Positions 1-51,416 of a DNA stretch of 64,000 bases are shown here, piece by piece. Source of the stretch: Arenicola marina (taxonomy: Eukaryota; Annelida; Polychaeta; Arenicolidae); assembly GCA_964019135.1 (NCBI GenBank), contig OZ025261.1:27202029-27266028 (forward strand), given 5' to 3'. The notes under the pieces were generated by a model. That model searched no databases. It worked only from the letters and a program-made list of their open reading frames with translations, and was not told the DNA's origin. The position numbers were made by a program, and so were the translations under genes. Position 1 is the first letter of the stretch; each line of letters begins with the position of its first letter.

Positions 1-1
1 A

Positions 2-229: not shown

Positions 230-249
230 AATAGAAGAGTATATATATA

Positions 250-1774: not shown

Positions 1775-1905
1775 TCCGACTTTTACAGCCCTTAACATAC
1801 CGTTGATTGAGCGCGATAGGTTTAACCCTCCACCGACTTTAACAGCCCTTAACATACCGTTGCTTGAGCGCGATAGGTTTACCCCTCCACCGACTTTTAC
1901 AGTTC
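1775..1905. repeat. 57-bp tandem repeat, about 2.3 copies
   Basis: The block CCGACTTTTACAGCCCTTAA followed by CATACCGTTGATTGAGCGCG and GGTTTAACCCTCCA is repeated with few changes. It sits next to G-rich dispersed repeat sequence. The overlapping ORFs on both strands arise from this low-complexity structure. Confidence 0.6.
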
Positions 1906-2945: not shown

Positions 2946-3055
2946 CCCTTGCCCCTTTTTCTGTTTATAGTGACGTGGCCATCAATCTATGTTGAAGATA
3001 CGGATGTTCTAATTCGTACCCGTTCGGTCGCAATACAGTCGCAAACGAATCGGAT

Positions 3056-3806: not shown

Positions 3807-4255
3807 CGGAAGACAATACATGCCAGAAATGTAATAATAATTGACCCCAACCATGTAATTCGTCAATATGTTCTCGTGCTATATGGATGACCACAAAAAC
3901 CGTCACTGCGCGTTCATCAATAATGCACAACCAAGAAAAAAGCAGATTTACCGTATAGTCCTGCTGGATCTGTGGACTAGCGGCAAGGCACACAGTGTAA
4001 AGATGGGGCTTGTATTGTCAAACCACACCAATAATTTATTGGAAGTCGTCCGTGGTATGACGACAGGGACGCAGGCGTCGACCACTGGGGCGTGACTGGC
4101 ATACCTGGACCAGTTCTATGGCAGGAGAAGTCAGTGGGACTGCACGAATTACCCTTTGGATGAAACACATTGTATGGAACCAGTTGAAACCAGTGACCAA
4201 TTAAGTATTTCATATTATTTGCATATTATTTTACAACCTCTGCCTCGAACAAGAC

Positions 4256-4286
4256 ATGGATGACAAGGACCGGAACAAGCTAACAG
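4256..4286 (+). CDS. Candidate first coding exon of the channel gene
   Basis: An ATG in good context (G at -3, G at +4) opens MDDKDRNKLT and ends after one extra base at a GTAGGA donor, so it closes in phase 1. The first certain channel exon (11338) needs exactly a phase-1 partner, and joining the two gives a coding length divisible by three with a short charged N terminus, normal for this family. It is a candidate only. The intron would be 7 kb and span two minisatellites, and a similar ACAGGTAGGACATG block occurs again near 4510. Confidence 0.33.
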
Positions 4287-4900
4287 GTAGGACATGTATG
4301 TTACCTGGACAGCAATCAAAGAATTCAAATAACATATGCAGTTTAGCCATCTTTATCCATCTGGCGATGATACGTTATACAGTAACTATCACTCCAGAAT
4401 GATCCGTCATCGTTAGCACAAGGCTAAACCATCAATTGTATATCATATTTATGAATGTTTGTAATACCATGGGCCGCTGGCCTTATAGTATTAAATAAAC
4501 AACAACAACAGGTAGGACATGGATATTATAAAATCACTGGACAGTTACCTAGGTGCCAGTTTGTGAAATGCAAGGACATAAATGTGTGTTACATTTATAT
4601 GCCAGTCGCTATTTAAACAGCACTGTGTTAATAACAAGGACAAATTAAAAAATTTAGGAGAGTATTGTGTCAATCAGAGACATGACGTATAATTTACATA
4701 TTACCTATCAAAAGCGGCGATACATTTCTTGATTAATGTTGCACATTTTATTTGTCTTGATTGATTGTCTTGTCACATAGCTTTAGCCTAATTCTTCATG
4801 GATAACTACAGGGTATCTGACTTGTTAATTTCCAACTCGTATTAGCATTTATTTCGGGTTATATCCACAAATAATATATACTGTAAAAAATAAAAACGGA

Positions 4901-9864: not shown

Positions 9865-9865
9865 A

Positions 9866-11262: not shown

Positions 11263-11337
11263 CTTGATCGGTCGCCGGTTACCGAAGGGTCAGTTGTAGA
11301 CTCATAATGTAGACTTTCGCCTTATATTTCTTTGCAG

Positions 11338-11419
11338 ATGAAGAAGGCCACTTCAGCCAGGAGACTACGTGGCATGGTGTGCGGTACGTGTTTGAGGCCG
11401 GCAGCGCCTTCACCAGGAG
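11338..11419 (+). CDS. Channel exon 2: cytoplasmic N terminus with HG motif
   Basis: It follows TTATATTTCTTTGCAG and ends at AGG|GTAAGA-type sequence, in phase 1 and out phase 2. It encodes DEEGHFSQETTWHGVRYVF and then EAGSAFTRR. The F-x(5)-T-x-HG-x(3)-F pattern is the conserved DEG/ENaC N-terminal segment, and its His-Gly pair is involved in gating. The ATG at 11338 is in another frame and is not the start. In-frame sequence upstream meets a stop before any ATG, so an earlier exon must supply the start. Confidence 0.85.
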
Positions 11420-14400
11420 GTAAGATTCCCCGGCAGCAGCCCGCCACTGATGGCGTGTTTGATTTACCCGAAACCGACAGGAAACCGAAACCATTTTTAA
11501 AACCGGTTTCAACGGTTTGCCCACCTAAAGGCGAACGCGTAGTTCCATTTGTGTTCAGTTTCAGCTCGTAAATTGGCAATGGCTATGTGCTTATGAAGTT
11601 GTGCCAGCATAAATATGCCGTCTGTTTCATTTCCTACCCGCGATTGGCCTGTTCCTTAAGTAATTATTCTCATACCTTTGTCCAGAAGTCTCTATTCATT
11701 ACCTTTGTCCAGAAGTCTCTGTTCATTACATTTGTGATCAACTATGGTGTATGTGTTCATTGAACTGACAGTTCCGCGCGACCGAAACCGTCAAACCAGC
11801 TCTCTCGACAGTTTCACGGTTTCAAGCAACCCGGTTTAGGTTCGTCTTCTGTCGGACAGTCGGCAACCCGGTTTAGGTTCGTCTTCTGTCGAACAGTCGG
11901 CAACCCGGTTTAGGTTCGTCTTCTGTCGAACAGTCGGCAACCCGGTTTAGGTTTGTCTTCTGTCGAACAGTCGGCAACCCGGTTTAGGTTCGTCTTCTGT
12001 CGAACAGTCGGCAACCCGGTTTAGGTTCGTCTTCTGTCGAACAGTCGGCAACCCGGTTTTGTTTTCATGTAAATCGAACACGCCATGATAGTAGCCACGC
12101 GTGTTTAACTCGATTGTGCTTCGTTCCATGAACACAAGCAGCATAATACGTAGTATTAATATAGTCAAATATATAGTTAAAATCATGTGGAACTGAGTGA
12201 CCAATATAGTTCATCTTGCGGTTGTTCTTCCGTGAGCTTTAAAGCCCCCTTGAGAGCGTTGATACCGCTTGACAGATCCGCAAATATGTACTTTCAATCG
12301 TATAGGAAAAAACAGACCGTTTATTTTTCATCGTTTTTACAATAACTAGAAACAAATATTTTTGTCACAATTTTTGTTTAAGCATTCTCGCTTTGAGGCC
12401 TTTGACTTTAGGTACGACGTTCTTTAATTATACGAACACCTTAGACCAACTAGAGGTCATATTTGTTCTAATTAAAGTTCAAATATGTTTCATTATAGTG
12501 ACAAGATATACACACAATAGAAGATATCAGGTTGGCCCAGCCCTACGGGGTTAAAAGTCACTCTGGTTGAAGAAAATCTGTTAGCTTTGACGTATTTAGT
12601 TACTTTAATATTGTGCGGACATCCTCTTTTCCAAACAGTGTCTGGGGGCAACCCCGATAGCTCAGTGGGTTAAAGCGCACGCATTGAACGCTGTGAGTGC
12701 CTAACGGCACGTGGATCGGTGGTTTGCGCCCGGCTGTGGCCATGTCTATGTGGTCGCAGGATACAGATCCCATGTCCTTCTTCGCAAAGGGTAGGGAGTT
12801 ACCCCCGGGGACATGGCTCCACTCTCCCTTCCCCTCTCCCATTGACGCGATATGACCAAAAGTGGCTAAAGCGTCCCGAATAACCAACCAACCAATCTAA
12901 GCAGTGTCTGATGTATTTTGCTAATTGACGCGAACAATGGTTAATCATGTAAATTAGTTGTTGATCTCTAGTGAAACCACTGAAGGTAGGGCATGCACTA
13001 TGTACATTATACCAGTCATTCCGAAATTCGTTATAAAAGTAAAAGCATTCAGATACAAAGTGAAACTCATCTTCGATGACGTTATCTTCACAAAATAAAC
13101 ATATACGTTCCTCTCGCAGTGTGTAGTATATACTTTATTTTCCTGCGCATGGGGTCTTTAAAGCAGCCTATACTTACATGCGCCATCTTAGATGTTTTAC
13201 ATTTTAGAATCAAGACTAAAAGTCTCTCAAAATTATGATGCATAGATATTTTATATCGCTTTGAGTCTGTAAGACAACAATTTCAAGATAAAACAGCGTG
13301 GACTAGTTTATCGCGCGGACGTCCTACTGAGTCGCGGTCGACACATCACACAGAATACCGAACAGCGAACAGGCGCGCAGGGATATAAAGCCGGCCACCA
13401 ACTTCTGCTCCGGTGAACACATTTTCTTCTCTCCAGATAGCCCACAGGGGGCTTTCAGGATTTAAATTCAAGACAGAATATACTTATTTGACATGGAAAA
13501 GAGGTTGGTAATGAAAAAATTACGGAAGATATTGCTTTAATGGCCTTCATGAAGCTCTGGTGTGGTTTGTGTTACAGGATCGCCTGGGCCCTCGCCATCC
13601 TGGGGGCGTTCGGGACCTTCCTCTACCTGGCCTCTACGAAGCTCATGGATTATTACTCCTGGCCGTCTCAGGTCGATCTGCTCGTCAAGTACACGCCGAC
13701 ACTGAGATTCCCAGCCGTCACAATCTGTAACCAAAACCCGTACAGGTACGAGCATCATTTATTCCCAATCAGCCACGCTGTTGTTGTTTTATCGTATATA
13801 TTCTGTATCTTGTCAGTAGACCGAATACACCGGTCCACACTCCGGCACTAAGCCCCGCCCATCAATCACTCACTGACGTCACTGTTGCTTTTATCCAATC
13901 ATGTGGTGAAAAAAGGTCTTCCACGTGCGTTATGTCAGACAAACAAGTCGGACAAACAAAGCAGTATGTCACTTTCTTGCCAGGTTCAGAGATGAGTACT
14001 TCTCACATGTACCATGAGCTATGATTGTCACTTTCATACTCACGACTAAGGAAAAAGGACTCAAGCGTGGGCGGGGCTTAGTGTCGGATCGCTATATTGT
14101 ATCTAAAGAGTGGCATGCATCATTCTATTCCAGATTGATCATGCAAAATAATTTAGTTGTGCGATTTAATACCAGTTTTTTTTTGTTACAGGATGACTTC
14201 TTTGCAAAAAGAAGGGTTGTACGACGTGTTTGTTCAGTCTTACTCCGCGGCGTACGGGAGACAACTATCAGGTGGGGGTCAGTGCAAAGAGACACCCCCG
14301 GGAGGGGGGGGGGCGGCACTGCATTGGTACAGTGGTGGGGGTGTGCCGCCCGAGTCTTAGATTGCGAGAGAAAAGTGCAATATTTTGCGGTGATTGAAAG

Positions 14401-17400
14401 ATAATTTTCAGTCATATCAACGTATATGAAAGTTAATTAATTGGACCCTTTCGATATCAACTGGAATATATAGTCAAGAGCTACAATTTTGATCAAACAT
14501 CAAGAGAAATTAATGTAGTGCACATTCGCCAAATGAAAAACTCGACGCTATCGTGGTGTCTCGTGGTGTGGTGCGCTTAACAACTAACTATATGCTACAG
14601 TCAAAATATATTATTCAGTGCAAATGGTTGAGTTCCTTTCTTTGCGTTTCCTTAACAAACAAGATGTCTCGTGCGAGCTGACCTTTGAACTCCTCACAAA
14701 CGTCTGCGCCGTCACCACCGGAGCGGTCTTCAGCGCCCTCTACCGGCAGACGACGCTGGCCGCCTGTCAGCTGTTGTGTGTGAGACTGGAGTCAGATTCT
14801 TGCAGCGCCGTCATCTACGACAGGCTGACCCAGGACTGTGTGCTGACGTCACTGACCGCGGAGAAAGCCGACGGGGCGACCACCAACTGTGCAGCCCCAG
14901 CAGGCGCTCGCTACTACAGGCGACATCGCTGTCTAGGTCAGTGTCAATGTAATATCTCACGCTCCCCGCACGGTGGCGCTGCGCACGCTCCGCTTTTACC
15001 GCTGCTGCCGGTGGGGGGCAAATTTCAAGATTCTTGAAAAAACGGTCAAATCAGGTGTAATATCTTGCAACATTAGAATTTTTCAAGAATAAAACATAAA
15101 AATAATGAGGTCTTTGTATTTAATTCAGCCAAAAAACATCTTGTACCCTCTCTTTTCATCCCCTGATACCATGGGTCATTAGGCTTAGGCTGGGTCCCAT
15201 TCACTAATTTGAAATGCGCGAAAATGCATTGAGGAAGTAGGCGACAAGGGAGATATAATGGAACCCCCGCGGAGTGAGTCGAAGGCAGAGCGTGATAATA
15301 TCTGTATCTTGGGGGTTAGTTCGGATATGCGATAGGAGTAACCGGCACAGATATTTGGATCATGCGCGCTCATAAATTCCGCTCGTGTGCGGATCAAGAT
15401 AAATCTAACGCAAAATCCGTATTCCGCACGAAAGTTGCACTTGTTGAACTGTACAAATCATGAAAAACATTAAACAGTACCATAGTAATATATCAGCGGA
15501 TATGTTTTGGGTTATCTTTTTTATTCTCTTTGTTATAATATTATTTTCAGATTGTTTGCAAGTCGAAATACTACGTTATACGTATTTAGCGTATTGTGGG
15601 ACCCCATGTTGGAAATCCGCGTGATCCACCTCCGGGAGTAAAAAAATGTACCACGTGACCGCGCTATCCGACCACAATCTCCGCGTTCGGTTATGCACTC
15701 CGCCGAGTCCGATTAGGCGGCTCGCATACTCTGACTCAACTGGAGTTATTGCTGAGGTGACGATGGTGTCCAGGTCACTTGGGGGACTGCAGTAATATTA
15801 TGGAGGAGGGGGTGGGGGGGGGGGGGGCAAGGGGTATTTGCGTTCCTCGGGATTGGGCCTTTCATTTCACCGTGAACTGGGAATGAGGAAAATAATTCTT
15901 CGTGAACTGGGAAGGGGCTATTAGCCGACCGCCGTGATTAAGAATTTTCATAAATCGTGAACTGGGAATTTGGACATGTATTAAATCACCGTGATTCGGG
16001 AAAACGTCAATTTAGTATTCTGTATCGGCTCTTTTTAATTTTAATTCATTGTGACTTGGGAATAAAGAAATTTCTTTTTCGTGATCTGGGAATCCAACCC
16101 TCCCCCCACCTCCCCTTGCCCCCTCCCCCCTATTATATATGACAGCTACCTGTCGTAAGAGGTCCTCGCAAGGAAACCAATGCTGAAGTGTTACATATTA
16201 TGGCAGAACCGCACATAAAAACGGGGGAAATAATTCTTATATTCTGAGTATTCTTTTATCAAGTTTAACTGAACCACAAATGTCAGCCCCTGTACCGTGG
16301 GTAGCATTTCCTATAGATCCTGATTTGCAGGCCTGACCTATAGGTAAAAACGTGATGCCTAACCTATAGGTAAAATACATGTCTGACCTATGGATAAAAT
16401 ACATGTGTGACATGTATGACATTTACCTCATGACATGAGGTAAAATACAGGTGAAATACATGCCTGACCTATACGTAAAACGTATTGTCCATGTGGGGCT
16501 TAAAACGTCTGAAACCAACCAACGTTTTTAGCCGGGGATCAGACATACGTTACGTCGCTCTTGCATTGAACTTTCGAATGATTGTCGGTACGCGGAACGG
16601 CGGTGGAGCCGAGCGGCGACGGAACCAAGGCGACGCGGTTCTGACGCGGTGGCCAACGCCCACTGGACGCGACTCGTCGCCCGGTGGTCAACGCCCACCG
16701 GACGCGACTCGTCGCCCGGCGGCCAACGCTCACTGGACGCGACTCGTCGCCCGGCGGCCAACGCCCACCGGACGCGACTCGTCGCCCGGCGGCCAATGTT
16801 CACTGGACGCGACTCGTCGCCCGGCGGCCAACGCCCACCGGACGCGACTCGTCACGCGGCGGCCAACGCCCACCGGACGCGACTCGTCACGCGGCGGCCA
16901 ACGCCCACCGGACGCGACTCGTCGCCCGGCGGCCAACGCCCACCGGACGCGACTCGTCGCCCGGCGGCCAACGCCCACCGGACGCGACTCGTCGCCCGGC
17001 GGCCAACGCCCACCGGACGCGACTCGTCGCCCGGCGGCCAACGCCCACCTGACGCAACTAGTCGCCCGGCGGCTAACGCCCACCGGACGCAACTCGTCAC
17101 GCGGCGGCCAACGCCCACCGGACGCGACTCGTCGCCCGGCGGCTAACGCCCACCGGACGCGACTCGTCGCCCGGCGGCCAACGCCCACCGGACGCGACTC
17201 GTCGCCCGGCGGCCAACGCCCACCTGACGCAACTAGTCGCCCGGCGGCCAACGCCCACCGGACGCGACTCGTCACGCGGCGGCCAACGCCCACCGGACGC
17301 GACTCGTCGCCCGGCGGCCAACGCCCACCGGACGCGACTCGTCGCCCGGTGGCCAACGCCCACCGGACGTGACTCGTCACGCGGCGGCCAACGCCCACCG

Positions 17401-47400: not shown

Positions 47401-50400
47401 CTTGTATTCCTACTTGACCTGCGTCCTGCCCGGTGAGTGAGATGCTTAACATACATGTGTAATTCAAGATTAAAAAAAACACTTATTGCGTGTTCGCCTT
47501 TTGAATGTATTGCGGTGCCCCCGTTGTAAACAAAATCCTACAGTCGGGACGTATCCATGCGAAGAGATAAGACCAGTTCAGCAATACGACGGTCCGTGTG
47601 GCTTTTTGGTGAAGTTCAGTGTCGTTTTTGTCAAAAAAAATTGCGGATGTCGCTTTTTCAGAACCTCAGTGTCGGAATTTGAGGTCAATGTCGAATGTCG
47701 ATTATTAAAATAGGCCTGTGTCGCGTGTCGCCATTTACCCCTTCCAGATCCCCAATACAGGAGTGAATTATTTAGCGTTGCTTAAGGCGAGAAATGGTAT
47801 AGTTGAGTTTTGTTTACGAGCGTGACGATGGATAAGGACATAAAGCGAGCTCTTACTCCGCAGCTTCGCTTGGTAATACCAAGCCGGACGTCGTTTGTCC
47901 CGTGAACGAGATGGGTCAGTGTAAAGGCGCCTGCGACTCACGGGAATTCGCCGCCGACCTGTCCTACGCCCAGCTCTCGGATAGTGCGTTGTTGGCCGTG
48001 ACGACTGAGGCGGTGGTCGAGGACTACCGGACGGCCCTAGAGCTGCAGCAACGACTGTCCTCCGATCTCCTGGCGGTAACCCTGGGCCGCATGCGAGATT
48101 TGGCCGGCAGTCTCCGAGAGATACAGTCCTACTTTCAGTTCAATGTCATCTCGACAACCACCTCGCTTTTCCGCCGCATTGATGCCGCAGTGACTGGTTT
48201 CGCCGCCCAGATGAACCGAGACATGGATCTACTGTACGGAGGCTTGGACGATATCCTGAATACGTACCGGATCCAGTTGGGGGCAGTTCGTAGCGTTCTC
48301 CGCTCACAGATAGAGGGTCTCAAGTCCAATCTGTTGACAGCGTATATTAACTCGTTGCCCTATGTTCACGATAGCGCAGAGGACATCGAACCTCTGTTAC
48401 CGTTTTTTCAAGCGGCCATCACTTCGTCCACCAACGTTTATAACACGGTGAATATAATGCAGGACTTCGACGGTTTTATCAAGATCGTGGTAAGGGACGA
48501 AGATGAGAGTAGACAGACCCTGCTCGATGATCTGAAGCTACCCGAACAACTGATCCCTTCAAAAGCACGTCAAGAACTATGCAAAGCAATAGTTGACAAC
48601 TACACCTCAAGGAAGCTCCAACTAGAAGGCCTGTTTGAGGTACTGATACCGCTGGTTGGTGGCGATGGACCCATTCGCAATATCAGCGCTTCTGAAATCG
48701 CCAGTATTCTGCTTGTCATGAAAGACGTGAGTAAAAATCTAACATTAGTTTATGAGTTTATTGAAGCTAGCGAGGCGTTGATGGCATGCGCCAGTGTGTA
48801 CGAGGACCATCTGACCGCAATGACAGCTCATCGCCTGTATGCCAGCCAGGAGCTAAACTACAGCGTGAACACGGCCATCTCTCTGCAGGAGGCGCTGGCG
48901 GCCATCAGACAGGTGGAGGACCAAATCGGTCAATTTTATCTGGACTACAGCCTCGCTACCATCACTAAGACAAGCATGACCTCGGGGCTGAACAGCGCGC
49001 TCAACGCTGAGCTGCAGGAGGTTCTCAGAGACGTGGAGAACCGACTTGACATCTCGTACGTGGCTCCCAGACTGGCAGTGTTCGCTGAGCTGCAGCGGCG
49101 GGCCGCGGCCGTCTACATGGCAGGCCTGAGAGACCTCGTCGACCATGGGGAGTACTTCTCGCAGGAGAAGAACGCATTCGACGACCGAACGAAGGGGATT
49201 TACCTGTGGCAGGAGCCGCTGCCCAACCTGGACAGCAGCCCGCCTATCAAAACCAAGTATGCCACCTCGGACGACGTCCCTTCGATCCCCAATATGAAGG
49301 CTTTGCTCGGTACCACAGGACTGGCAAAGATCTCAGTGAGTATTGCAGAAATTATCATACATACATATATATATATAGATATATATATATCGATGAATGT
49401 GTGGATGGTTGGATAGATGGATAGATGTATAAGGATGCAGGGGCGTGCGCAGGAATTTTTGAAAGAGGGCGGGGGCACAATAAATTGTTCCACCAAAACG
49501 TGACAAAATTGTGTGTACAATTCTGAGACGTAGGTGACCGTCGTGCACGTTACGTACTATATGCACACATTAACATAGTTGGTAATACACATAGACTACT
49601 AAGCTTAATGCATTGTAATATTATATAAGGAGAGACCAAGAGACACAAAATTTGAAAGAAAGCGGTGGGGGTGGGGGGGGGGGGAACAGATATACCTTAG
49701 GGTCTGAAAGGGGGTACGCCCATTTGGTGGGGGGTGGGATAGGTTAATCCATACCGAACTCAAATTTAATATGTCCGAGATTGGTTTATTTATACCAAAG
49801 AAAGATCTTTTCGAAATCTGTACAACCACACCGAGTTTCCTCGGCTAAATGACGCGTTGGCCTTTTCAAACAGGACCTAGGTTTGAACCAATAAGATGGC
49901 AAGATAACGTACCTGTCACCTTTAAAAACTGTCGCGGTCAGCTGCATTAATTAACATATGGCAGGTCATATCGTTGACGTGGTTTGGGCCGTTCCTTTAA
50001 GATGCCAGTGCAAGTACCATCCCAGAGTGTCTTAATCAACATATGTCTGTGACATGAACTAAATCTTAAATCATCGTTTGTTGGCGATTGGTTTTCCAGA
50101 AAATCCTGTCGAACTTTTTTGACGGCCTCTCCCTGGAGATGACGAATTTCCAGTCGGAGCTAGTGGGTAGACGACTGCAACTCGACAATGTCTTCACCAA
50201 CCTGATGCGGGACTTTGAAGACTACGACAAGAAGACAGAAATAGACACAGAATTCGTTAAGTAAGTAAGGCAGAGATTTTTGACTGGCCGCCAAATCATT
50301 ACAAATATGTACCTTTTGCCACAGTTTATGTGTTTTTTCACGTTTATTTATGTGTTATTTAAATTTACAGAGGCAAATGAACATAGTGTGCGAGTAAAAT

Positions 50401-51416
50401 ACTGATTTTAATTCTTGGTATGGTATGAACAATTGAATTTACATTTATTTCGGTACATGTCCAATTATCTGTACCGATCGATATTTGCTGCGCGGGGTTC
50501 CCCAGAACATCGGGCTTCCTCAAGGCATAGAGGTTAATGACTAATATGATGCATTATCTGGCGGGTACGGGATTCGTGCCCACAATGACGCCCATGCTCA
50601 ACGAACAAAGGTCTTCACATAAACCTGATTGATATCGTTGCGAATTGCATTCAGACTCTTCCTTTTACAGGCAAAACCTAATGCGCCTAGACATTTACTA
50701 CGCCGAGCTGAAGGAGTCACAGGTTAACCAGAGGGTGGCTTACGCGATGCCGGATTTCTGGGGTAGGTTGCCAGTGTGTATGAAGTGTGTCACGTGACAT
50801 GTGGCAGTCATTGTAGAAATAGTGGGGCGAAGATACGAAGTACGAAGATAAAAGCCGCAGATGTGAACTGGAATTGCATGATTACTTCACGGAATGTGAC
50901 CAAAAGAAGGCCTTACTGCCCTATATCGCCTTAACATGTGATTCATGAAAATTAATGACATTGTTCTGTCGGCATATGCTGCGGCGTTATCACGACAAAC
51001 CAAAATTTTCACATCTGAGCTTTCTGGTTTCAACCACATAATCATTACTGACAAATTGCCTCAAGCGTGATAACGGAAATCCATCTCCTTAACCGATATG
51101 TATCACTTTATCTTCTGTGTCATATAATAAAATGACATATCGTTGTTGTAGTTGTGAGTACTAAGTGAGTTATGTATACACGACATGTAGTCATGTCGCA
51201 AGCAAAAGATAATCTAGTGTGGCATTAATTACACGGCTGTGTGTCATACCGACAGGAGACTTGGGCGGCTACCTGGGCCTGCTACTGGGCGCCTCGGTCC
51301 TCAGCGTGGTCGAGGTCCTCGACTGGGTCATGGTCAAGGTTGCGAGACGCCGGGGACAGGCCCGCGTCATGGCCATGAAGGGGGCGCCACCCGACACGAG
51401 GGTCCTTCACCGCTAA
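11338..51416 (+). CDS. Modular DEG/ENaC (ASC) channel, about 2,080 aa, 30 exons
   Basis: This is the whole gene span, introns included. Exons: 11338-11419, 13578-13745, 14192-14271, 14664-14936, 18161-18274, 19430-19624, 20568-20720, 21389-21634, 23148-23264, 23966-24076, 24712-25104, 25862-26317, 26942-27138, 27484-27685, 28257-28399, 29399-29615, 30039-30137, 30374-30712, 31571-31665, 32189-32270, 33014-33077, 33772-33890, 37469-37551, 37934-38032, 40612-40762, 47382-47432, 47864-49335, 50100-50260, 50671-50762, 51256-51416. All junctions are GT-AG and in phase. The two ends are a canonical amiloride-sensitive (ASC) cation channel: HG motif, TM1, FPAVTICNQNPYR, Cys-rich finger and thumb, and TM2 with GAS. 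Between them lie PAN, MAM, kringle, LDLa, MAM, a PTS linker, a MAM with nested CUB, a fourth MAM and a Thr linker, then a 500-residue helical insert before TM2. Family members form trimeric plasma-membrane Na+ channels and are usually 500-700 aa. What gates this one (ligand, matrix or force) is unknown. The first exon is uncertain (see 4256). Confidence 0.88.
11451..12085 (-). mobile_element. MITE family A, copy 1 (contains a minisatellite)
   Basis: Ends are TGGCGTGTTTGATTTAC and its near-complement GTAAATCGAACACGCCA. The interior matches the reverse complement of 20802-21229 and 61030-61449 (AAACCGGTTTCAACGGTTTG, CACCTAAAGGCGAACGC). It begins about 30 bp after the exon 2 donor. One terminal region has been amplified into a 37-bp tandem array. 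Confidence 0.8.
11833..12057. repeat. 37-bp minisatellite inside a MITE, 6 copies
   Basis: The unit AACCCGGTTTAGGTTCGTCT followed by TCTGTCGAACAGTCGGC is repeated six times. The same segment is present once in the other family A copies (as complement near 20835-20880), so the array grew from MITE sequence. Confidence 0.85.
12645..12901 (+). mobile_element. tRNA-derived SINE with target-site duplication
   Basis: The head ACCCCGATAGCTCAGTGGGT looks like a tRNA gene start with an A box (TAGCTCAGTGGG) and a diverged B-box-like GGATCGGTGGTTTGCGCCC. An unrelated body follows and the tail is (AACC)n. The 9-bp sequence CAGTGTCTG flanks it at 12636-12644 and 12902-12910, a clean target-site duplication. 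Related bodies are found at 53985-54260 and 54797-55110 in the opposite orientation. The head is too diverged to be a working tRNA. Confidence 0.85.
13158..13540 (+). mobile_element. TTAA-flanked MITE family C, copy 1
   Basis: TTAA at each end brackets AGCA...TATTGCT inverted termini. The interior (ACATGCGCCATCTTAGAT, GAACAGCGAACAGGCGCGCA, GCCGGCCACCAACTTCTGCT) is shared with copies at 19037-19419 and 52501-52870. TTAA duplications are typical of piggyBac-type elements, so this is probably a non-autonomous relative. It ends 37 bp before channel exon 3. Confidence 0.82.
13578..13745 (+). CDS. Channel exon 3: TM1 and post-TM1 motif
   Basis: It encodes (R)IAWALAILGAFGTFLYLAST, the first membrane helix, preceded by the Arg-Arg pair formed at the splice. 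Then comes KLMDYYSWPSQVDLLVKY and the family signature FPAVTICNQNPYR. The YY after TM1 and the FPAVTICN motif are hallmarks of ASC channels. The acceptor is TTGTGTTACAG and the donor ACAG|GTACGA, phase 2 at both ends. Confidence 0.93.
13815..14100. mobile_element. MITE family D, copy a
   Basis: It begins AGTAGACCGA and contains CACTGACGTCACTGTTGCTT, TTATCCAATCATGTGGTGAA and, near the other end, GCGTGGGCGGGGCTTAGTGT. The same blocks occur at 18289-18690, 24474-24655 and 62261-62662. It lies in the intron between channel exons 3 and 4. Confidence 0.7.
14192..14271 (+). CDS. Channel exon 4: start of extracellular palm
   Basis: It encodes MTSLQKEGLYDVFVQSYSAA and then YGRQLSG, completing the Arg of NPYR. 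This corresponds to the first palm strand and helix of ASC channels, which normally leads into the finger. Here the next exon is an apple-type module, so the large insertion begins at this phase-1 junction. The acceptor is a T-rich tract plus TTACAG; the donor is TCAG|GTGGGG. Confidence 0.85.
14664..14936 (+). CDS. Channel exon 5: PAN/apple-like domain
   Basis: Phase 1-1 exon of 91 residues with Cys spacing typical of PAN/apple modules: CELTFELLTNVC, then C-x3-C (CQLLC), DSCSAVIYDRLTQDC and a final Cys in TNC, followed by RYYRRHRCL. PAN modules bind proteins or carbohydrates outside the cell. The acceptor CAAACAAG is weak but gives the only open phase-1 frame; the donor is CTAG|GTCAGT. A Thr/Ala-rich stretch separates the last cysteines. 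Confidence 0.75.
15811..16100 (+). mobile_element. Dispersed repeat copy 2 (pair with 2676-2945)
   Basis: G-run start, GGGTATTTGCGTTCCTCGGG, repeated GTGAACTGGGAA-like motifs, ATTAGCCGACCGCCGTGATT and a C-rich end, in the same order and orientation as the copy 13 kb upstream. Confidence 0.62.
16648..17812. repeat. 35-bp GC-rich minisatellite, about 33 copies
   Basis: The unit GCCCACCGGACGCGACTCGT followed by CGCCCGGCGGCCAAC is repeated almost perfectly, with a TCACGCGG variant every few units. It lies wholly in intron 5. Long ORFs on both strands are artefacts of the array. It is very CpG-rich (about seven CpG per unit). Confidence 0.95.
18161..18274 (+). CDS. Channel exon 6: MAM domain 1, N-terminal part
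   Basis: Phase 1-1 exon starting after CTACTTCAG. It encodes SLFCDFESEKCEVTIATN and then DVFELVQGADFTSGR. The CDFE-x3-C start is the MAM hallmark; the usual W of MAM is replaced. MAM modules mediate adhesion and protein contacts. The donor is GAG|GTAAAC. Confidence 0.82.
18289..18690. mobile_element. MITE family D, copy b
   Basis: Opens with AATAAACCGATCCAGGCTGT and closes with CAGTCTGGGGCGGTCTATTA. Terminal regions are long imperfect inverted repeats containing TCAATCACTGACG and GTGACGTCACGGAATCATTGA. It begins about 14 bp after the exon 6 donor. Confidence 0.75.
19037..19419 (-). mobile_element. TTAA-flanked MITE family C, copy 2, abutting exon 7
   Basis: TTAA at 19037-19040 and 19416-19419 bracket AGCAATATA...TATATTGCT. 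It is inverted relative to copies 1 and 3. Only ten bases (ACTTCCACAG) separate its right TTAA from channel exon 7, so the branch point and most of the pyrimidine tract must lie in the element. Confidence 0.82.
19430..19624 (+). CDS. Channel exon 7: MAM domain 1, central part
   Basis: Encodes ADGHYMNFLATGVRPKYRAQ, LVTPYMNTTNKCLRFVYRIR, GDVAPTIDVISVDEDLTYDV and IKTFN. The G-x-Y-M, A-x-L-x(2)-P and C-L-x-F-x-Y elements match MAM strands. The phase-1 acceptor is CTTCCACAG; the donor is CAACA|GTACGT, phase 1. The upstream neighbour is a MITE. Confidence 0.88.
19657..20450. repeat. 31-bp minisatellite, about 26 copies
   Basis: The unit GAGTAATGAACCTCCTTGGT followed by GTTCCTGCTCT is repeated through most of intron 7. 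Variants ending TGTGAGTAATG contain GTGAGT, a strong donor-like hexamer, but the unit does not include exon sequence. ORFs on the complement are artefacts. Confidence 0.93.
20568..20720 (+). CDS. Channel exon 8: MAM domain 1, C-terminal part
   Basis: Encodes SHYLLGNEWQTAYVRLLDGV, NSVIIEATRPAEGVSGSQID and NVELNTCSYL. The GNEWQ-x-A-x-V and S-x-I-D-N-V-x-L-x(2)-C segments are the classical end of a MAM domain. Acceptor CGCCACAG, donor CTCG|GTAACT, phase 1 at both ends. Confidence 0.9.
20802..21229 (+). mobile_element. MITE family A, copy 2
   Basis: Terminal inverted repeats are TTAGAGCGTGTTCGTTTTAC and GTAAATTGAATACGCCCTAA. The interior includes GAGAGCTGGTTTGACAGTTT, GACTAATTAATTACGGAACA and AGGTGGGCAAACCGTTGAAA, all shared with copies 1 and 3. 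This is the most intact copy and serves as the reference. Confidence 0.85.
21389..21634 (+). CDS. Channel exon 9: kringle-like domain
   Basis: Phase 1-1 exon of 82 residues encoding ERDCRPEGRYNLYLGHRQTS, LMGLPCINWTDVGYFANFWA, HFSNAGLTPAETENFCRSWV and, at the end, VQCDVEAC. The G-x2-Y-x-G-x3-T-x2-G-x2-C-x2-W pattern, the NFCR near two thirds, and the six Cys spacing match kringles. The usual D-x-W-C is altered (SSVLVC). Kringles are protein-binding discs known from secreted proteases and receptors; one within an ion channel subunit is unexpected. Confidence 0.78.
21700..23147. repeat. 105-bp minisatellite of exon 10 acceptors, 13 decoys
   Basis: The unit contains two TGACGTCA palindromes, CCTATTGTTCTTTCAG and the first half of the LDLa exon (ECRSESSHQCSTGFCVAERH in the decoys, then Pro-Val-stop). 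Acceptor-like sites recur near 21777, 21881, 21986, 22092, 22197, 22303, 22411, 22516, 22621, 22726, 22831, 22936 and 23041. The fourteenth, ending at 23147, leads into the intact exon. Decoy copies hit TGA and have no good donor. Confidence 0.92.
23148..23264 (+). CDS. Channel exon 10: LDL-receptor class A domain
   Basis: Phase 1-1 exon encoding ECRSDSSHQCSNGFCVAERH and LCDGHDDCPNGSDETIDQC. Six cysteines and the acidic CDGHDDCPNGSDE calcium-binding box give a canonical LDLa module. Its 5' half and acceptor are the source of the 105-bp array just upstream. The donor is TGTG|GTAAGT, a strong site. Confidence 0.93.
23265..23965. other. Intron 10 of the channel gene
   Basis: A 0.7 kb intron with no gene seen. 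Around 23696-23778 a 34-bp unit (GCTAGATGGCGTAGCTGAGG and flanking bases) is repeated about 2.4 times. The rest looks unique. Confidence 0.6.
23966..24076 (+). CDS. Channel exon 11: MAM domain 2, N-terminal part
   Basis: Encodes VPNIHVDCRFENPFVCGYET and TQTLSFPWKRRETLDEK. The DC-x-FE-x(4)-C-G-Y opening and the W further on match MAM starts. Acceptor CTGTCTCTTCAG, donor AAAG|GTATGG, phase 1 at both ends. Confidence 0.83.
24474..24655. mobile_element. MITE family D, copy c (short)
   Basis: Starts ATAATAGACCGATCCAGGCA and ends GAGTGTGGATCGGTCTATTA. Internal blocks are the same as in the other copies but the centre is deleted, giving 180 bp. It lies about 55 bp upstream of exon 12. Confidence 0.8.
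24712..25104 (+). CDS. Channel exon 12: MAM domain 2, central and C-terminal
   Basis: Phase 1-1 exon of 131 residues, a single exon for the rest of MAM 2. It includes AWVMEANTWDAIPGDVAVIQ, SPSQHFLLPTVITFQVNLHS, a Pro-rich loop, and EYRVCMPAGQRALQFEAVAG ending FGLDDVMVTKETC. MAM 1 uses two exons for this part, so the intron pattern differs between copies. Acceptor CGTCCCTTCAG, donor GACG|GTCAGT. Confidence 0.85.
25105..25861. other. Intron 12 of the channel gene
   Basis: A 0.76 kb AT-rich intron. Nothing beyond unique-looking sequence was recognised. Confidence 0.55.
25862..26317 (+). CDS. Channel exon 13: AAPTSSP repeats then start of MAM 3
   Basis: After CCCATTCAG the frame reads ESA, then 14 in-frame copies of the 7-residue unit AAPTSSP, a mucin-like Pro/Thr/Ser linker likely to be O-glycosylated and extended. 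It continues ASASAVSTIDCDFDDGFRGY and HDSSLNSLFSWDLMPKAYID, whose CDFDD start and W match the MAM N terminus. It ends at CCGC|GTGAGT in phase 1. The partner half of this MAM is exon 16-17, with a CUB domain in between. Confidence 0.85.
25867..26160 (+). repeat. 21-bp coding minisatellite, exactly 14 copies
   Basis: The unit GCCGCCCCTACCTCAAGCCC (plus one T) is repeated with no visible variation over 294 bp. A 21-bp unit keeps frame whatever the copy number, and the homogeneity suggests recent expansion. Frames other than the coding one also stay open. Confidence 0.96.
26410..26760. repeat. 34-bp minisatellite in intron 13
   Basis: The unit GTGTCACCATGTCGATGATG followed by TCATCGTTTTGAGG is repeated about seven times, with degenerate units at each edge. 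Confidence 0.9.
26942..27138 (+). CDS. Channel exon 14: CUB domain, first half
   Basis: Starts after a T-rich tract and CAG, in phase 1. It encodes LKSDNEVRYFGTRGRLASFG, FPHSYENGLSSHYIIVQPPG, AETQITVETIQIEPHSWDPG and CYDSLE. The G-x-L-x-S-x-G-F-P-x-S-Y-x-N-G start, W/Y-x-I-x2-P-x-G and C-Y-D-S-L-E are CUB features. It ends phase 0 at GGAG|GTATGA. Confidence 0.85.
27484..27685 (+). CDS. Channel exon 15: CUB domain, second half
   Basis: Starts phase 0 after ACTGACTACTAG. It encodes IQDGDAADLPCKLPVSGLQN, NNTLCGEVAPVLEVFTSKFI, HLCFKTDFSVVQRGFQVRYK and GNLAADT. The F-x-S-x(5)-C/F-x-T-D-x-S-V-x(2)-GF-x-V-x-Y end is typical CUB. It ends phase 1 at ACTG|GTCAGT, so the two exons form a symmetric phase 1-1 CUB cassette. 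Confidence 0.87.
27686..28256. other. Intron 15 of the channel gene
   Basis: A 0.57 kb intron of unique-looking sequence. No exon or RNA gene was seen. Confidence 0.5.
28257..28399 (+). CDS. Channel exon 16: MAM domain 3, central part
   Basis: In phase 1 it encodes DYVAFLAFRGDEQQRSQNVP, EATLSSPNTLLEGHNCISFM and MRVESRFK. It aligns with exon 7 of MAM 1 (GHYMNFLATG, AQLVTPYMNTTNKCLRFVYR) and so continues the MAM begun in exon 13. It ends phase 0 with AAG|GTAGTA; the last G and the donor are the first bases of a TTAA-flanked element. Confidence 0.86.
28395..28879. mobile_element. TTAA-flanked element supplying the exon 16 donor
   Basis: TTAA at 28395-28398 and 28876-28879 flank inverted termini GGTAGTATGC and GCGTACTACC (9 of 10 complementary). 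The left TTAA is inside the coding exon. After the right TTAA comes GGTGTGTCAG, which would have made a donor AAG|GTGTGT before insertion. The interior is 477 bp and non-coding. Confidence 0.7.
29399..29615 (+). CDS. Channel exon 17: MAM domain 3, C-terminal part
   Basis: Starts phase 0 after TGCCACGACAG. It encodes VTIHKERRGYAETVTLVEVA, GSLGDEWHWMYITLTPRPGL, WSVSFTGAAYPSGYYGAFVD and DVSLRPGQCKDL. The G-D-E-W-x-W and G-A-F-V-D-D-V-S-L-x-P-G-x-C elements match the end of MAM. Donor CTCG|GTTAGT, phase 1. Confidence 0.88.
29616..30038. other. Intron 17 of the channel gene
   Basis: A 0.42 kb intron; no other feature was recognised. Confidence 0.5.
30039..30137 (+). CDS. Channel exon 18: MAM domain 4, N-terminal part
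   Basis: Phase 1-1 exon encoding VREGSVACDFSSPDQCGYRD and VTLDGTTWWTRKC. ACDF-x(5)-CGY and the WW pair fit the MAM start. Acceptor GGGCGCAG, donor TGTG|GTGAGT. Confidence 0.84.
30374..30712 (+). CDS. Channel exon 19: MAM domain 4, divergent remainder
   Basis: Phase 1-1 exon of 113 residues. It includes ENVTGCYMEVTIGYSFDSSA, LTAKCVRYNVSCSQNCRYDH, STWAEMSMLVPAGHFRFSIQ and SGGVRLDEITWDNLPCETT. The last two blocks match the MAM end. The middle has three extra cysteines and several N-glycosylation sequons (NVT, NVS, NAT, NGS), so this copy is diverged. The donor ACCG|GTAAGT is the seed of the 22-bp array downstream. Confidence 0.8.
30713..31210. repeat. 22-bp minisatellite of exon 19 donor sequence
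   Basis: The unit GGTAAGTTAAACGGTAAACA plus CG is repeated about 22 times directly from the splice donor. Many copies keep GGTAAGT, a strong 5' splice site, so the true donor is the first of a long series. Confidence 0.92.
31571..31665 (+). CDS. Channel exon 20: Thr-rich linker
   Basis: In phase 1 after TGTTTCTCAG it encodes GHLYVALTPAMTTTTPRPDV and TMAANGSAGSST. It has no fold signature and is probably an O-glycosylated spacer between MAM 4 and the returning channel core. The 3' end is uncertain: ACT|GTACGC is used here, but GAC|GTAACC 35 bases earlier has the same phase. Confidence 0.62.
31711..31925. repeat. G-run/C-run dispersed repeat in intron 20
   Basis: It opens with AAGCTCACGGGGCGTGTCCAG and contains long G and C runs plus GGGCCCTCC blocks. 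This is the same general G/C-bounded repeat type as near 9600 and 49440. No coding potential. Confidence 0.5.
32189..32270 (+). CDS. Channel exon 21: linker back to channel core
   Basis: After CCATGTTACAG in phase 0 it encodes SVVGVTDTTKRPHSFNEDAW and LETINEL, ending phase 1 at CTTG|GTCGGT. No domain is recognised. It leads into the ASC finger segment in exon 22. Identified mainly from phase and position. Confidence 0.65.
32302..32775. repeat. 54-bp minisatellite, about 9 copies
   Basis: The unit TCAGACTTATTATCGTTACT, CAACTATTTGAACGCTCTAT, ATACATAGGTACAA is repeated with few changes in intron 21. It starts about 30 bp after the exon 21 donor but does not include it. Confidence 0.93.
33014..33077 (+). 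CDS. Channel exon 22: ASC finger segment
   Basis: Phase 1 to phase 2 exon encoding GGVNLQQFVNITAHSYQKTL and LG. It precedes the C-x-W-x-G-x2-C motif of exon 23, as in ASC channels where an F-x(4) helix leads to the first finger cysteine. Acceptor TTATGTCCAG, donor CTGG|GTAGGT. Confidence 0.72.
33078..33771. other. Intron 22 of the channel gene, with small foldback
   Basis: A 0.69 kb intron. At 33608-33702 the arms GTTTAACCGACTACGGGGCT and AGCCCCGTAGCCGGCTAAAC form a near-perfect inverted repeat around TTAATTATTAGTCGGC, a small foldback element. The rest is unique. Confidence 0.6.
33772..33890 (+). CDS. Channel exon 23: ASC finger Cys motif
   Basis: Encodes CRWGGQPCDEYYLKETETDM, GRCVTFNWNNESFLMANSS. 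The C-x-W-x-G-x2-C-x(7)-T-x(4)-G-x-C-x-T-F-N pattern is highly diagnostic of ASC/DEG/ENaC channels. Acceptor CCTTTGTAG (phase 2), donor TCGG|GTATGC (phase 1). Confidence 0.93.
33891..35590. other. Intron 23, first part: dispersed repeat sequence
   Basis: It contains a foldback-like region (about 34010-34220, ends ATACATCTAAACG and GCTAGATGTATCACGGG), a (GTCT)n run near 34245-34295, and a long dispersed repeat that includes AAAGGTCAAGGTCA several times (34400-35080). ORFs of 60-85 codons here are not supported as genes. Confidence 0.5.
35600..37320. repeat. 23-bp AT-rich minisatellite, about 75 copies
   Basis: The unit GTATATGAGTCATTATTGAG plus CAA is repeated with moderate divergence. TGAGTCAT, an AP-1-like octamer, occurs in most units. 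Confidence 0.93.
37469..37551 (+). CDS. Channel exon 24: ASC palm segment
   Basis: In phase 1 after GTGTCCAG it encodes GTSDGLQLWVNVEHYEYVAE and VATVSGIK, phase 0 out. The GL-x-L-x-(L/V)-x-V-x2-x-EY...G-x-K pattern is the conserved ASC palm strand that ends before the 'V-x(2)-x-D-x(3)-P' segment of exon 25. Confidence 0.9.
37552..37933. other. Intron 24 of the channel gene
   Basis: A short intron of 0.38 kb. It includes a CGTTATG/ATTACGCT-like low-complexity patch near 37720-37800. No other feature. Confidence 0.5.
37934..38032 (+). CDS. Channel exon 25: ASC palm, source of 67-bp array
   Basis: Phase 0-0 exon encoding VLLSDQDDVPQMRNMGFNIG and PGQHVLASLSYSS. It matches the ASC 'hDpxxxPxxxxxGxxixPGxxxxixis' block. 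Its last 51 bases and donor AGC|GTAAGT are the start of a 67-bp repeat array downstream. Only the first donor keeps the reading frame. Confidence 0.9.
37982..39690. repeat. 67-bp minisatellite of exon 25 end plus donor, about 25 copies
   Basis: The unit TTCAACATTGGCCCAGGACA, ACACGTGCTCGCTAGTCTCA, GCTACAGCAGC joins exonic sequence to GTAAGTTATAACAGGC. About 25 near-identical copies follow, nearly all with an intact GTAAGT. The unit is not a multiple of three and reading through meets a TAA in the second copy. Confidence 0.95.
39840..40560. repeat. Degenerate AT-rich tandem motif
   Basis: An irregular repeat based on GAATAATTAAAACCGGAGC and relatives (GGGAATTATATATTC, AAATAATTTAAACCGG) with a spacing of about 18-30 bp. 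It fills the end of intron 25 and looks like a decayed minisatellite. Confidence 0.6.
40612..40762 (+). CDS. Channel exon 26: ASC thumb Cys cluster
   Basis: In phase 0 after CTCTCTTTGTAG it encodes QSFEEPPYGTCGTLPLSYYD, NATYTFGRCASQCEAETMVY and LCNCTDVYMPG. The P-Y-G-x-C, Y-x(3)-C-x2-C and C-x-C-x(5)-P-G pattern is the ASC thumb. It ends phase 1 at CCAG|GTGGGT. Its last 46 or so bases and the donor are the unit of the 56-bp array that follows. Confidence 0.94.
40717..46130. repeat. 56-bp minisatellite of exon 26 end plus donor, about 95 copies
   Basis: The unit GAGACCATGGCCCTCCTCTG, TAACTGTACTGACGTCTACA, TGCCAG joins exon 26 coding sequence to GTGGGTTGGT. It fills 5.4 kb, with variants arranged in higher-order blocks (for example 41600-41960 again at 42217-42460 and 42553-42800). 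Nearly every copy keeps CCAG|GTGGGT. False ORFs on the complement (WSHQPTWHVDVSTVTEEG) are artefacts. Confidence 0.96.
46131..47381. other. Intron 26, distal part
   Basis: 1.25 kb between the array and exon 27. It holds a TIR element (46405-47071) and, within it, a 60-bp direct duplication rich in TAATATTAGTATGA (46690-46805). No exon was seen. Confidence 0.55.
46405..47071. mobile_element. MITE with GGGCGTATTT termini
   Basis: Left end ATGGGGCGTATTTGATTATA and right end GCATAATAAAATACGCCCAT are inverted repeats with two or three mismatches. The interior is AT-rich with no transposase ORF. The first bases resemble the family A terminus (GGGCGTATT), so the two may be related. Confidence 0.6.
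47382..47432 (+). CDS. Channel exon 27: ASC thumb
   Basis: A 17-residue phase 1-1 micro-exon encoding GDVDDCDLYSYLTCVLP after TTTTTGTTCCAG, with donor CCCG|GTGAGT. Fits the ASC 'C-x(5-7)-C' step after the P-G of exon 26. Confidence 0.85.
47864..49335 (+). CDS. Channel exon 28: thumb end and about 490-aa helical insert
   Basis: The largest exon (1,472 bp), phase 1 in and phase 0 out. It opens ASLGNTKPDVVCPVNEMGQC and KGACDSREFAADLSYAQLS, the ASC thumb end (C-P-x(6)-C-x3-C-x(9)-Y-x3-S). Then about 430 residues follow that look largely alpha-helical, with few Cys and heptad-like Leu/Ile spacing (for example TALELQQRLSSDLLAVTLGR, LNAELQEVLRDVENRLDISY) and several N-glycosylation sequons (NYT, NIS, NLT, NYS). 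Normal ASC channels have only a few tens of residues here. No known domain was recognised. Donor ATCTCA|GTGAGT. Confidence 0.88.
49336..50099. other. Intron 28 of the channel gene
   Basis: It contains a (TA)n/(GATA)-like patch (49365-49430) and a G-rich dispersed repeat (GCAGGGGCGTGCGCAGGAAT at 49437, G-run to about 49740). No exon seen. Confidence 0.55.
50100..50260 (+). CDS. Channel exon 29: end of helical insert
   Basis: Phase 0 to phase 2 exon encoding KILSNFFDGLSLEMTNFQSE, LVGRRLQLDNVFTNLMRDFE and DYDKKTEIDTEFV. Predicted helical and acidic, continuing the insert toward the pre-TM2 strand. Acceptor GGTTTTCCAG, donor TTAA|GTAAGT. Confidence 0.82.
50671..50762 (+). CDS. Channel exon 30: pre-TM2 palm strand
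   Basis: Encodes KQNLMRLDIYYAELKESQVN and QRVAYAMPDFWG. It corresponds to the ASC signature 'N-x(3)-L-x-I-Y-Y-x-E-L-x(5)-x-Q-x2-AY', the last palm strand before the pore. Acceptor CTTTTACAG (phase 2), donor TGGG|GTAGGT (phase 1). Confidence 0.93.
50763..51255. other. Intron 30 of the channel gene
   Basis: A 0.49 kb AT-rich last intron. Nothing else was recognised. Confidence 0.5.
51256..51416 (+). CDS. Channel exon 31: TM2, selectivity filter, C terminus
   Basis: Encodes GDLGGYLGLLLGASVLSVVE and VLDWVMVKVARRRGQARVM, ending in a TAA at 51414-51416. G-D-(L/I)-GG-x-x-GL-x-x-GAS-x-L-(S/T)-x-x-E is the diagnostic TM2 of DEG/ENaC channels, and GAS is the pore filter. A positive cytoplasmic stop-transfer (KVARRRGQAR) and a short tail ending VLHR follow. 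No PY motif is present. Confidence 0.95.

What the first reader, a model, noticed from the sequence alone, without database searches (positions are those of the whole stretch)
11338..51416. A DEG/ENaC channel with a giant modular ectodomain
Seen: one phase-consistent exon series joins a canonical ASC channel start (HG motif, TM1, FPAVTICNQNPYR) to a canonical end (GDLGGYLGLLLGASVLSVVE) with PAN, four MAM, kringle, LDLa and CUB modules between, about 2,080 residues in all. Known: typical ASC subunits are 500-700 residues with a compact ectodomain and no such adhesion modules. Inference: the modules could tether the pore to matrix or ligands, giving a new type of mechanosensory or ligand-gated channel.
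Basis: partly seen in the sequence, partly recalled or inferred. Interest (0 to 1): 0.93.

Follow-up and report, generated by a model that had tools for sequence, protein, structure and literature searches.

The report
Ion channel with giant modular ectodomain
One 31-exon gene, probably from an amphioxus-like animal, is predicted to encode a sodium-channel subunit of the DEG/ENaC family whose outer part is swollen to about 2,000 residues by two inserts, one a chain of adhesion-type modules and one a long, probably helical segment, and an annelid worm has a predicted protein with the same order of parts, so the design looks old and kept rather than an accident.

Summary
Without the inserts the core matches the ASC family (6.6e-80) and ASIC1 (2.5e-53). 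Decisive: a predicted Capitella protein (2,127 aa) and a truncated Paralvinella one (1,332 aa) have the same order. Scored singly at 1e-2, 13 and 12 tblastn hits lie on the + strand in order; 24 fall in model exons, 1 in a copied exon end. So it is no chance join and not unique to this genome. The inserts fall at finger and knuckle, where FMRFamide opens FaNaC and matrix tethering has been proposed. ASIC-type proton gating is unlikely. No transcript or function was tested; kringle, PAN and MAM4 are below Pfam cut-offs here. Best reading: a conserved DEG/ENaC class set or opened by what the module arm binds. New variant of a known kind.

The parts
4256..4286 (+). exon 1, aa 1-10 (MDDKDRNKLT), putative start; least certain exon
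   Evidence: ATG, donor 8.7 bits, phase fits exon 2; 3 of 10 identical to P0001, i.e. no real homology support
11338..11419 (+). exon 2, aa 11-37, cytosolic N-terminus with HG motif (TWHGVR)
   Evidence: H23 G24 identical in P0001; no tblastn hit of its own
13578..13745 (+). exon 3, aa 38-93, TM1 and first palm strand, FPAVTICNQNPYR
   Evidence: Pfam ASC 1.1e-10; tblastn of P0001 and P0002
14192..14271 (+). exon 4, aa 94-120, finger helix 1 region (MTSLQKEGLYDVFVQS)
   Evidence: tblastn P0002, 0.008
14601..14936 (+). exon 5, aa 121-232, PAN-like module; start may be 14664 instead
   Evidence: PAN_1 3e-4, 21.0 bits, just under cut-off; tblastn
18161..20720 (+). exons 6-8 (18161-18274, 19430-19624, 20568-20720), aa 233-386, MAM1
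   Evidence: MAM 5.6e-13; tblastn for exons 7 and 8
21389..21634 (+). exon 9, aa 387-468, divergent kringle, six Cys at 390, 412, 442, 453, 463, 468
   Evidence: Kringle 6.8e-4, 20.3 bits, below cut-off 34.3; aligned with passing kringles of P0001/P0002; single tblastn hits only 0.057 and 0.041
23148..23264 (+). exon 10, aa 469-507, LDLa
   Evidence: Ldl_recept_a 1.3e-5, 25.8 bits when cut out
23966..25104 (+). exons 11-12 (23966-24076, 24712-25104), aa 508-675, MAM2
   Evidence: MAM 4.1e-7; tblastn
25862..26317 (+). exon 13, aa 676-827: 14-copy 21-bp coding repeat (APTSSP-type linker), then N-terminal third of MAM3
   Evidence: P0002 hit 26188-26259 in a linked set, 0.050 singly
26942..27685 (+). 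exons 14-15 (26942-27138, 27484-27685), aa 828-960, CUB nested inside MAM3
   Evidence: CUB 3.1e-9; MAM3 score rises from 36.2 to 43.0 bits and covers 1-158 of 158 when the CUB is cut out
28257..29615 (+). exons 16-17 (28257-28399, 29399-29615), aa 961-1080, rest of MAM3
   Evidence: no tblastn hit
30039..30712 (+). exons 18-19 (30039-30137, 30374-30712), aa 1081-1226, divergent MAM4
   Evidence: MAM 5.9e-4, 20.1 bits, below cut-off; tblastn exon 18
31571..31665 (+). exon 20, aa 1227-1258, Thr/Pro/Ser linker (weak donor, weak homology)
32189..33890 (+). exons 21-23 (32189-32270, 33014-33077, 33772-33890), aa 1259-1346, ASC resumes: finger helix 3 region and CxWxGxxC motif
   Evidence: Pfam ASC best stretch 1287-1515; tblastn exon 23; exon 21 only 5 of 27 identical to P0001
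37469..38032 (+). exons 24-25 (37469-37551, 37934-38032), aa 1347-1407, ASC palm (SGIKVLL)
   Evidence: tblastn
40612..40762 (+). exon 26, aa 1408-1457, ASC thumb region (YGTCG ... CNCTDVYMPG)
   Evidence: tblastn 47% to P0002, 2.9e-11
47382..47432 (+). exon 27, aa 1458-1474, ASC thumb region (DVDDCDLYSYLTCVLP)
   Evidence: 9 of 17 identical to P0001; tblastn 0.078 singly
47864..49335 (+). exon 28, aa 1475-1965: end of thumb/palm strand, then most of the knuckle insert (491 residues in all, 1517-2007)
   Evidence: tblastn P0001 3.3e-13; predicted helical but mean pLDDT only 36
50100..50260 (+). exon 29, aa 1966-2018, end of the insert and return to ASC (IDTEFVKQN)
   Evidence: no tblastn hit
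50671..50762 (+). exon 30, aa 2019-2049, palm strands before TM2 (QNLMRLDIYYAEL)
   Evidence: tblastn 0.002
51256..51416 (+). exon 31, aa 2050-2102, TM2 with GAS filter, short C-terminus, stop
   Evidence: 27 of 47 identical to P0001; no tblastn hit
21734..23211 (+). tandem array, 105 bp x 14, copies of the exon 10 acceptor boundary ('mirage')
30708..31213 (+). tandem array, 22 bp x 23, begins on the exon 19 donor
37982..39692 (+). tandem array, 67 bp x 25.5, copies of the exon 25 3' end and donor
40716..46147 (+). tandem array, 56 bp x 96.8, copies of the exon 26 3' end and donor

Best explanation
A real, single DEG/ENaC (ASC) subunit gene of an old animal class with two inserts. SHOWN by sequence: two membrane segments only (39-57, 2058-2076), a complete ASC core once the inserts are removed, insert 1 (aa 121-1258: PAN, MAM, kringle, LDLa, MAM, linker, MAM with nested CUB, MAM, linker) and insert 2 (aa 1517-2007), same order of parts in a Capitella protein and, up to the thumb, in a Paralvinella protein. 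INFERRED: as a trimer the channel would carry three ~1,140-residue arms rooted in the finger between helices 1 and 2, and three stalks rooted at the knuckle; finger and neighbouring knuckle meet at one outer corner of the trimer. A partner held by the arm (matrix, cell-surface or soluble ligand, or a protease) would move finger against knuckle and thumb and so open or set the Na+ pore, as FMRFamide does in FaNaC. The modules fit protein binding; the linkers give reach. Proton gating of the ASIC kind is not expected. The stated confidence is for a real single subunit that works as a channel; for the gating step I put about 0.5.
For: 31-exon single frame, GT-AG throughout. Two hydrophobic segments by a Kyte-Doolittle scan, threshold 1.5. 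Core without inserts: Pfam ASC 6.6e-80, positions 4-454 of 455; ASIC1 2.5e-53. Capitella P0001, 2,127 aa, 6.5e-174, with ASC, MAM, CUB, kringle and LDLa; Paralvinella P0002, 1,332 aa, 8e-199, same module set. Ordered tblastn hits, scored singly: 13 and 12, 24 of 25 in model exons. With the CUB cut out MAM3 matches the whole MAM profile in all three proteins, in Capitella below cut-off. Insert sites read from the ASIC1 alignment, about residues 124/125 and 385/386 of 6ave. In FaNaC1 the peptide pocket is formed by finger alpha1-alpha3 and the knuckle alpha6, which lies in the adjacent subunit; the same corner is listed as a proposed matrix-tethering site (PMC11026163, passages). H73 position is Q69 here, Q in P0001, L in P0002; K211 position is S1345 here, F in P0002.
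Against: All three proteins with this order are gene predictions; no cDNA was seen. Kringle, PAN and MAM4 are below Pfam cut-offs in this protein; in Capitella only two MAM stretches are found by Pfam, so its MAM3 and MAM4 rest on alignment. Exons 1, 2, 6, 16, 17, 19-22, 29 and 31 gave no tblastn hit of their own even at E<=1. P0002 stops before insert 2, so that insert is shared with one protein only. At the K211 position Capitella has R, so a basic residue is not lost in all relatives. The mechanism rests on insert position and module habits only. Structure prediction of exon 28 failed (mean pLDDT 36). Finger/knuckle helix boundaries on ASIC1 are recalled.
Confidence: 0.75

Rival explanations
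1. Two or three neighbouring genes (ASC start, a secreted MAM/CUB/kringle protein, ASC end) wrongly joined.
For: Phase-1 introns (20 of 30 here) are the rule for shuffled modules (recalled), so phase match across module borders is weak evidence by itself. No transcript available; the relatives are predictions too.
Against: Neither ASC part alone has both TM helices; the same order occurs in one predicted polypeptide in Capitella and, up to the thumb, in Paralvinella; the exon 4/5 and 20/21 joins are in frame; at about 30% identity between the proteins a shared annotation error is unlikely.
Confidence: 0.04
2. The modules mainly hold a protease-controlled gate, a counterpart of the GRIP domain of ENaC: cleavage of the arm releases inhibition.
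For: Double cleavage in the extracellular GRIP domain frees inhibitory tracts and opens ENaC (PMC8791634, passages); that GRIP sits in the finger region is recalled. PAN, kringle, CUB, MAM and LDLa are common in extracellular protease systems (recalled). A YRRHRCL stretch between PAN and MAM1 is identical in Paralvinella.
Against: No RX[K/R]R motif in the model; the YRRHR stretch is absent in Capitella; an insert of 1,138 residues is far larger than a GRIP domain (recalled).
Confidence: 0.15
3. A non-conducting or accessory subunit: an adhesion receptor that keeps an ASC fold only for trimer assembly with other ASC subunits.
For: Many DEG/ENaC subunits need partners (recalled); the arm is far larger than the pore.
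Against: GAS filter and HG motif are kept, and exon 31 with TM2 is the exon most like Capitella (27 of 47 identical), which argues for a working pore.
Confidence: 0.15
4. A decaying gene: splice-site arrays and a degenerate kringle mean it no longer makes the protein.
For: 95 copies of the exon 26 donor context and 12 of the exon 10 acceptor context, native sites included; kringle below cut-off.
Against: No stop in 2,102 codons of the curated frame; GC3 0.673 in the CDS against intron GC 0.473; such 'mirages' are reported not to disturb regular splicing in amphioxus Adh3 and globin genes (PMC3087553, passages).
Confidence: 0.05

Closest known systems
Capitella teleta CAPTEDRAFT_229395 (P0001) and Paralvinella palmiformis LSH36_5g02006 (P0002)
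   Same: Same module order, CUB within MAM3, insert between TM1 and palm; P0001 also the long insert before TM2
   Different: About 30% identity; linkers differ; P0002 ends after the thumb; both are unnamed predictions
ASIC1 and ASIC5
   Same: Best solved relatives of the pore and palm core, ASIC1 2.5e-53
   Different: No modules; H73 and K211 equivalents missing in the window protein
FaNaC (FMRFamide-gated Na+ channels)
   Same: Activating site is built by finger and neighbouring knuckle, the two places enlarged here (PMC11026163, passages)
   Different: No such modules known to me (recalled); weaker sequence match (3.7e-23)
ENaC alpha/gamma with GRIP domain
   Same: Regulatory extra domain in the finger region (location recalled)
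   Different: Cleavage at paired polybasic tracts (PMC8791634, passages); no such motif here
Branchiostoma Xlink-F5/8C-kringle ASC proteins (LOC118430223 P0008, LOC109475034 P0005)
   Same: ASC with adhesion-type modules and a kringle between TM1 and palm
   Different: Other module set; no long insert before TM2 by reading of the sequence; only ASC parts align with the model

Membership tests
DEG/ENaC (ASC, PF00858) | Whole-family profile match | tested here: met
   269.8 bits, positions 4-454 of 455 with inserts removed; 235.2 bits with them
DEG/ENaC (ASC, PF00858) | Two TM helices with a large ectodomain between | tested here: met
   Two hydrophobic segments, 39-57 and 2058-2076
DEG/ENaC (ASC, PF00858) | HG motif and G-x-S filter in TM2 | tested here: met
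   H23 G24; G2061 A2062 S2063
DEG/ENaC (ASC, PF00858) | Amiloride-sensitive Na+ current, trimer | not testable with these tools
   needs expression
Proton-gated ASIC | H73 and K211 equivalents | tested here: not met
   Q69 and S1345; importance of the two residues from PMC10507113, passages, which also lists proton-activated channels without them
FaNaC/WaNaC | Peptide gating | not testable with these tools
   sequence only; the finger is split by the insert
ENaC with GRIP | Paired polybasic cleavage tracts in the GRIP domain | tested here: not met
   no RX[K/R]R in the model; RXXR only at 224, 227, 388
Annelid-type giant ASC (P0001, P0002) | Same module order with CUB within MAM3 | tested here: met
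   MAM3 of Capitella below cut-off (20.5 bits)
Annelid-type giant ASC (P0001, P0002) | Long insert before TM2 | tested here: met
   aligned with P0001, 3.3e-13; P0002 ends before it

The most novel reading that the evidence does not exclude
A separate, unnamed class of DEG/ENaC channels that goes back to the protostome-deuterostome ancestor, in which a matrix- or protein-binding arm in the finger of one subunit and a helical stalk in the knuckle of the next form a composite receptor or force-bearing tether that opens the pore: one polypeptide doing what, in touch-sensing degenerins, is thought to need separate matrix proteins.
Probability: 0.3. Interest if true: 0.9.

Novelty: new variant of a known kind. 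Interest (0 to 1): 0.74.

Why it matters
A class that carries its own ~1,140-residue adhesion-type arm at the known gating corner would give a direct, testable case of a tethered or ligand-operated channel, and shows that finger and knuckle tolerate very large inserts. The Capitella protein sits in databases as 'hypothetical protein' and 'Kringle domain-containing'. I found no description in the open library: searches returned no paper; others (2 listed of 2; 14 of 14; 1 of 1; 14 of 15; 15 of 207) listed none that looked relevant by title and abstract start; and the word 'kringle' does not occur in the main text of four DEG/ENaC papers (PMC9949801, PMC10507113, PMC9822975, PMC9234716). That library lacks most subscription journals.

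Tried and rejected
Structure prediction of exon 28 with P0001 as the only other row gave mean pLDDT 36; I ran no fold search on it and use it only for the cautious word 'helical'. The third protein search (model residues 1259-1520 alone) had 1,438 candidates and no hit at 1e-3, not even P0001: a limit of the word filter, not evidence of absence, so the phyletic range is open. In the first search only the 7,983 candidates sharing most words were scored, I think because of the APTSSP linker. Other hits (P0003, P0004 cubilin; P0006, P0007 CUB/sushi; P0009 unnamed) list no ASC domain; P0003 and P0006 gave no tblastn hit to the window, P0005 and P0008 only TM1-region hits; P0004, P0007 and P0009 were not tried. 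My first control let tblastn link neighbouring hits, which favours ordered sets, so I repeated it with hits scored singly: at 1e-2 order holds; at E<=1, 1 of 18 Capitella hits is out of order and outside the gene (2650-2715, E 0.22), and 16 of 30 Paralvinella hits lie in the exon 25 copies. I considered calling the gene chordate-specific and rejected it on the annelid hits. Source species: not given by any tool. Tandem copies of exon boundaries ('mirages') are described from amphioxus (PMC3087553), hence 'probably amphioxus-like'; but no Branchiostoma protein of this architecture turned up, so this stays an inference. The fragment at 1-230 looks to me like the end of a peptide-receptor GPCR (recalled), but Pfam found nothing in its three frames. 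Pfam coverage was partial: on the + strand 231-11301, the third frame of 11.3-16.3 kb, 16.3-18.0 kb and 41-46 kb were not scanned as raw frames; on the - strand only 52-64 kb and one ORF, 12799-13134 (nothing).

Full report
What was checked. I read most of the + strand of the locus, scored splice sites and joined exons by hand. The result is 31 exons from 4256 to 51416, all introns GT-AG, one open frame of 2,102 codons plus stop. Of 30 introns 20 are phase 1, 6 phase 0, 4 phase 2. A Kyte-Doolittle scan shows two segments fit for a membrane helix, 39-57 and 2058-2076.

Domains. On the whole model Pfam gives ASC 2e-69 in three stretches, MAM 2.3e-31 in four, CUB 9.5e-8, LDLa 1.1e-4. Cut out one by one: MAM1 5.6e-13, LDLa 1.3e-5, MAM2 4.1e-7, CUB 3.1e-9, MAM3 6.5e-9, MAM4 5.9e-4, PAN 3e-4, kringle 6.8e-4. 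PAN, MAM4 and kringle are below Pfam's own cut-offs in this protein. The kringle keeps six cysteines at about the usual spacing (rule recalled) and aligns with kringles of P0001 (51.5 bits) and P0002 (55.1 bits) that pass the cut-off of 34.3. PAN is below cut-off in the relatives as well (15.3 and 17.2 bits). Without inserts the ASC core scores 269.8 bits over positions 4-454 of 455.

A domain inside a domain. The third MAM is split: its first third is in exon 13, then a CUB in exons 14-15, then the rest in exons 16-17. With the CUB removed the MAM match grows from positions 45-158 (36.2 bits) to 1-158 (43.0 bits). After the same cut Paralvinella gives 41.1 bits over 1-157 and Capitella 20.5 bits, below cut-off, over 1-158.

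Relatives. Of 7,983 candidates scored one passed 1e-3: Capitella teleta CAPTEDRAFT_229395, 2,127 aa, 6.5e-174. A search with the two-sequence profile (5,205 candidates, 8 hits) added Paralvinella (1,332 aa, ending after the thumb) and two Branchiostoma proteins with another module set (Xlink, F5/8C, kringle); the five others list no ASC domain. A third search found nothing. Independent of my exon choices, tblastn of P0001 and P0002 against the window, each hit scored singly at 1e-2, gives 13 and 12 hits, all on the + strand and in order; 24 of 25 lie in model exons and one in the tandem copies of exon 25. Linked scoring gives 15 and 14. Reversed sequences gave none; 20 shuffles of each gave none with linking at 1e-2 and 3 and 5 in all when scored singly at E<=1. 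In a global alignment, identity to Capitella runs from 19% to 57% by exon. This rules out a chance join and makes a lineage-specific fusion unlikely.

Where the inserts sit. In the alignment to ASIC1 insert 1 (121-1258) falls at about residues 124/125 of 6ave, between finger helices 1 and 2, and insert 2 (1517-2007) at about 385/386, at the start of the knuckle helix. The helix names on ASIC1 are recalled. In FaNaC1 the peptide pocket is formed by finger alpha1-alpha3, the beta6-beta7 loop and the alpha6 knuckle helix of the adjacent subunit, and the finger closing round the peptide starts the opening movement; the authors list the same corner as holding protease-binding sites in ENaC and proposed sites of matrix tethering in mechanosensitive relatives (PMC11026163, passages). 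In ENaC, cleavage of the GRIP domain opens the channel (PMC8791634, passages); its place in the finger region is recalled. So both enlargements of this protein lie at a known control corner. That is the basis of the proposed mechanism; it is inference.

What it probably does not do. H73 and K211, common to proton-gated ASICs (PMC10507113, passages), are Q69 and S1345 here; the first is Q in Capitella and L in Paralvinella, the second R in Capitella and F in Paralvinella (read). Channels without these residues can still respond to protons (same paper), so this lowers but does not exclude acid sensitivity. No RX[K/R]R site exists.

Doubts. No transcript was seen. Weakest acceptors are those of exons 15, 18, 5 and 17, weakest donors those of exons 20, 21, 7, 17 and 8; exons 20-22 have little homology, so small errors there are likely. 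The structure attempt failed. The species is not given.

Verdict. Real and conserved; a new variant of DEG/ENaC. One gene and one polypeptide: about 0.93. Given that, a working channel: about 0.8; together about 0.75, the confidence stated. Opened or set by something bound by the arm: about 0.5. These odds are judgements, not computed.

Noticed in passing
window 21734-23211, 30708-31213, 37982-39692, 40716-46147: Four tandem arrays whose unit contains a splice site of the neighbouring exon (acceptor of exon 10; donors of exons 19, 25, 26). Within two mismatches of the native context there are 12, 10, 25 and 95 copies, native site included. Such 'mirages' are described from amphioxus Adh3 and globin genes (PMC3087553, passages); four in one gene, one with 95 donor copies, seems extreme.
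   Followed up: partly
window 25865-26166: Coding 21-bp repeat, 14.4 copies, 100% match, giving the APTSSP-type linker; likely variable in length between alleles.
   Followed up: no
P0005, P0008 (Branchiostoma): ASC channels with Xlink, F5/8C and kringle modules between TM1 and palm: a second modular DEG/ENaC class, so the finger may be a repeated insertion point.
   Followed up: partly
model aa 226-232 (end of exon 5) and P0002: YRRHRCL between PAN and MAM1 is identical in Paralvinella but absent in Capitella; a possible basic cleavage site.
   Followed up: no
window 1-230: Looks like the 3' end of a peptide-receptor-type GPCR gene on the + strand (recalled; no Pfam match).
   Followed up: partly
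window 3064-3805, 4908-7678, 9889-11251, 16647-17809, 35597-37275, 62932-63743: Further minisatellites, e.g. 15 bp x 185 and 58 bp x 23.5, in introns and flanks.
   Followed up: no
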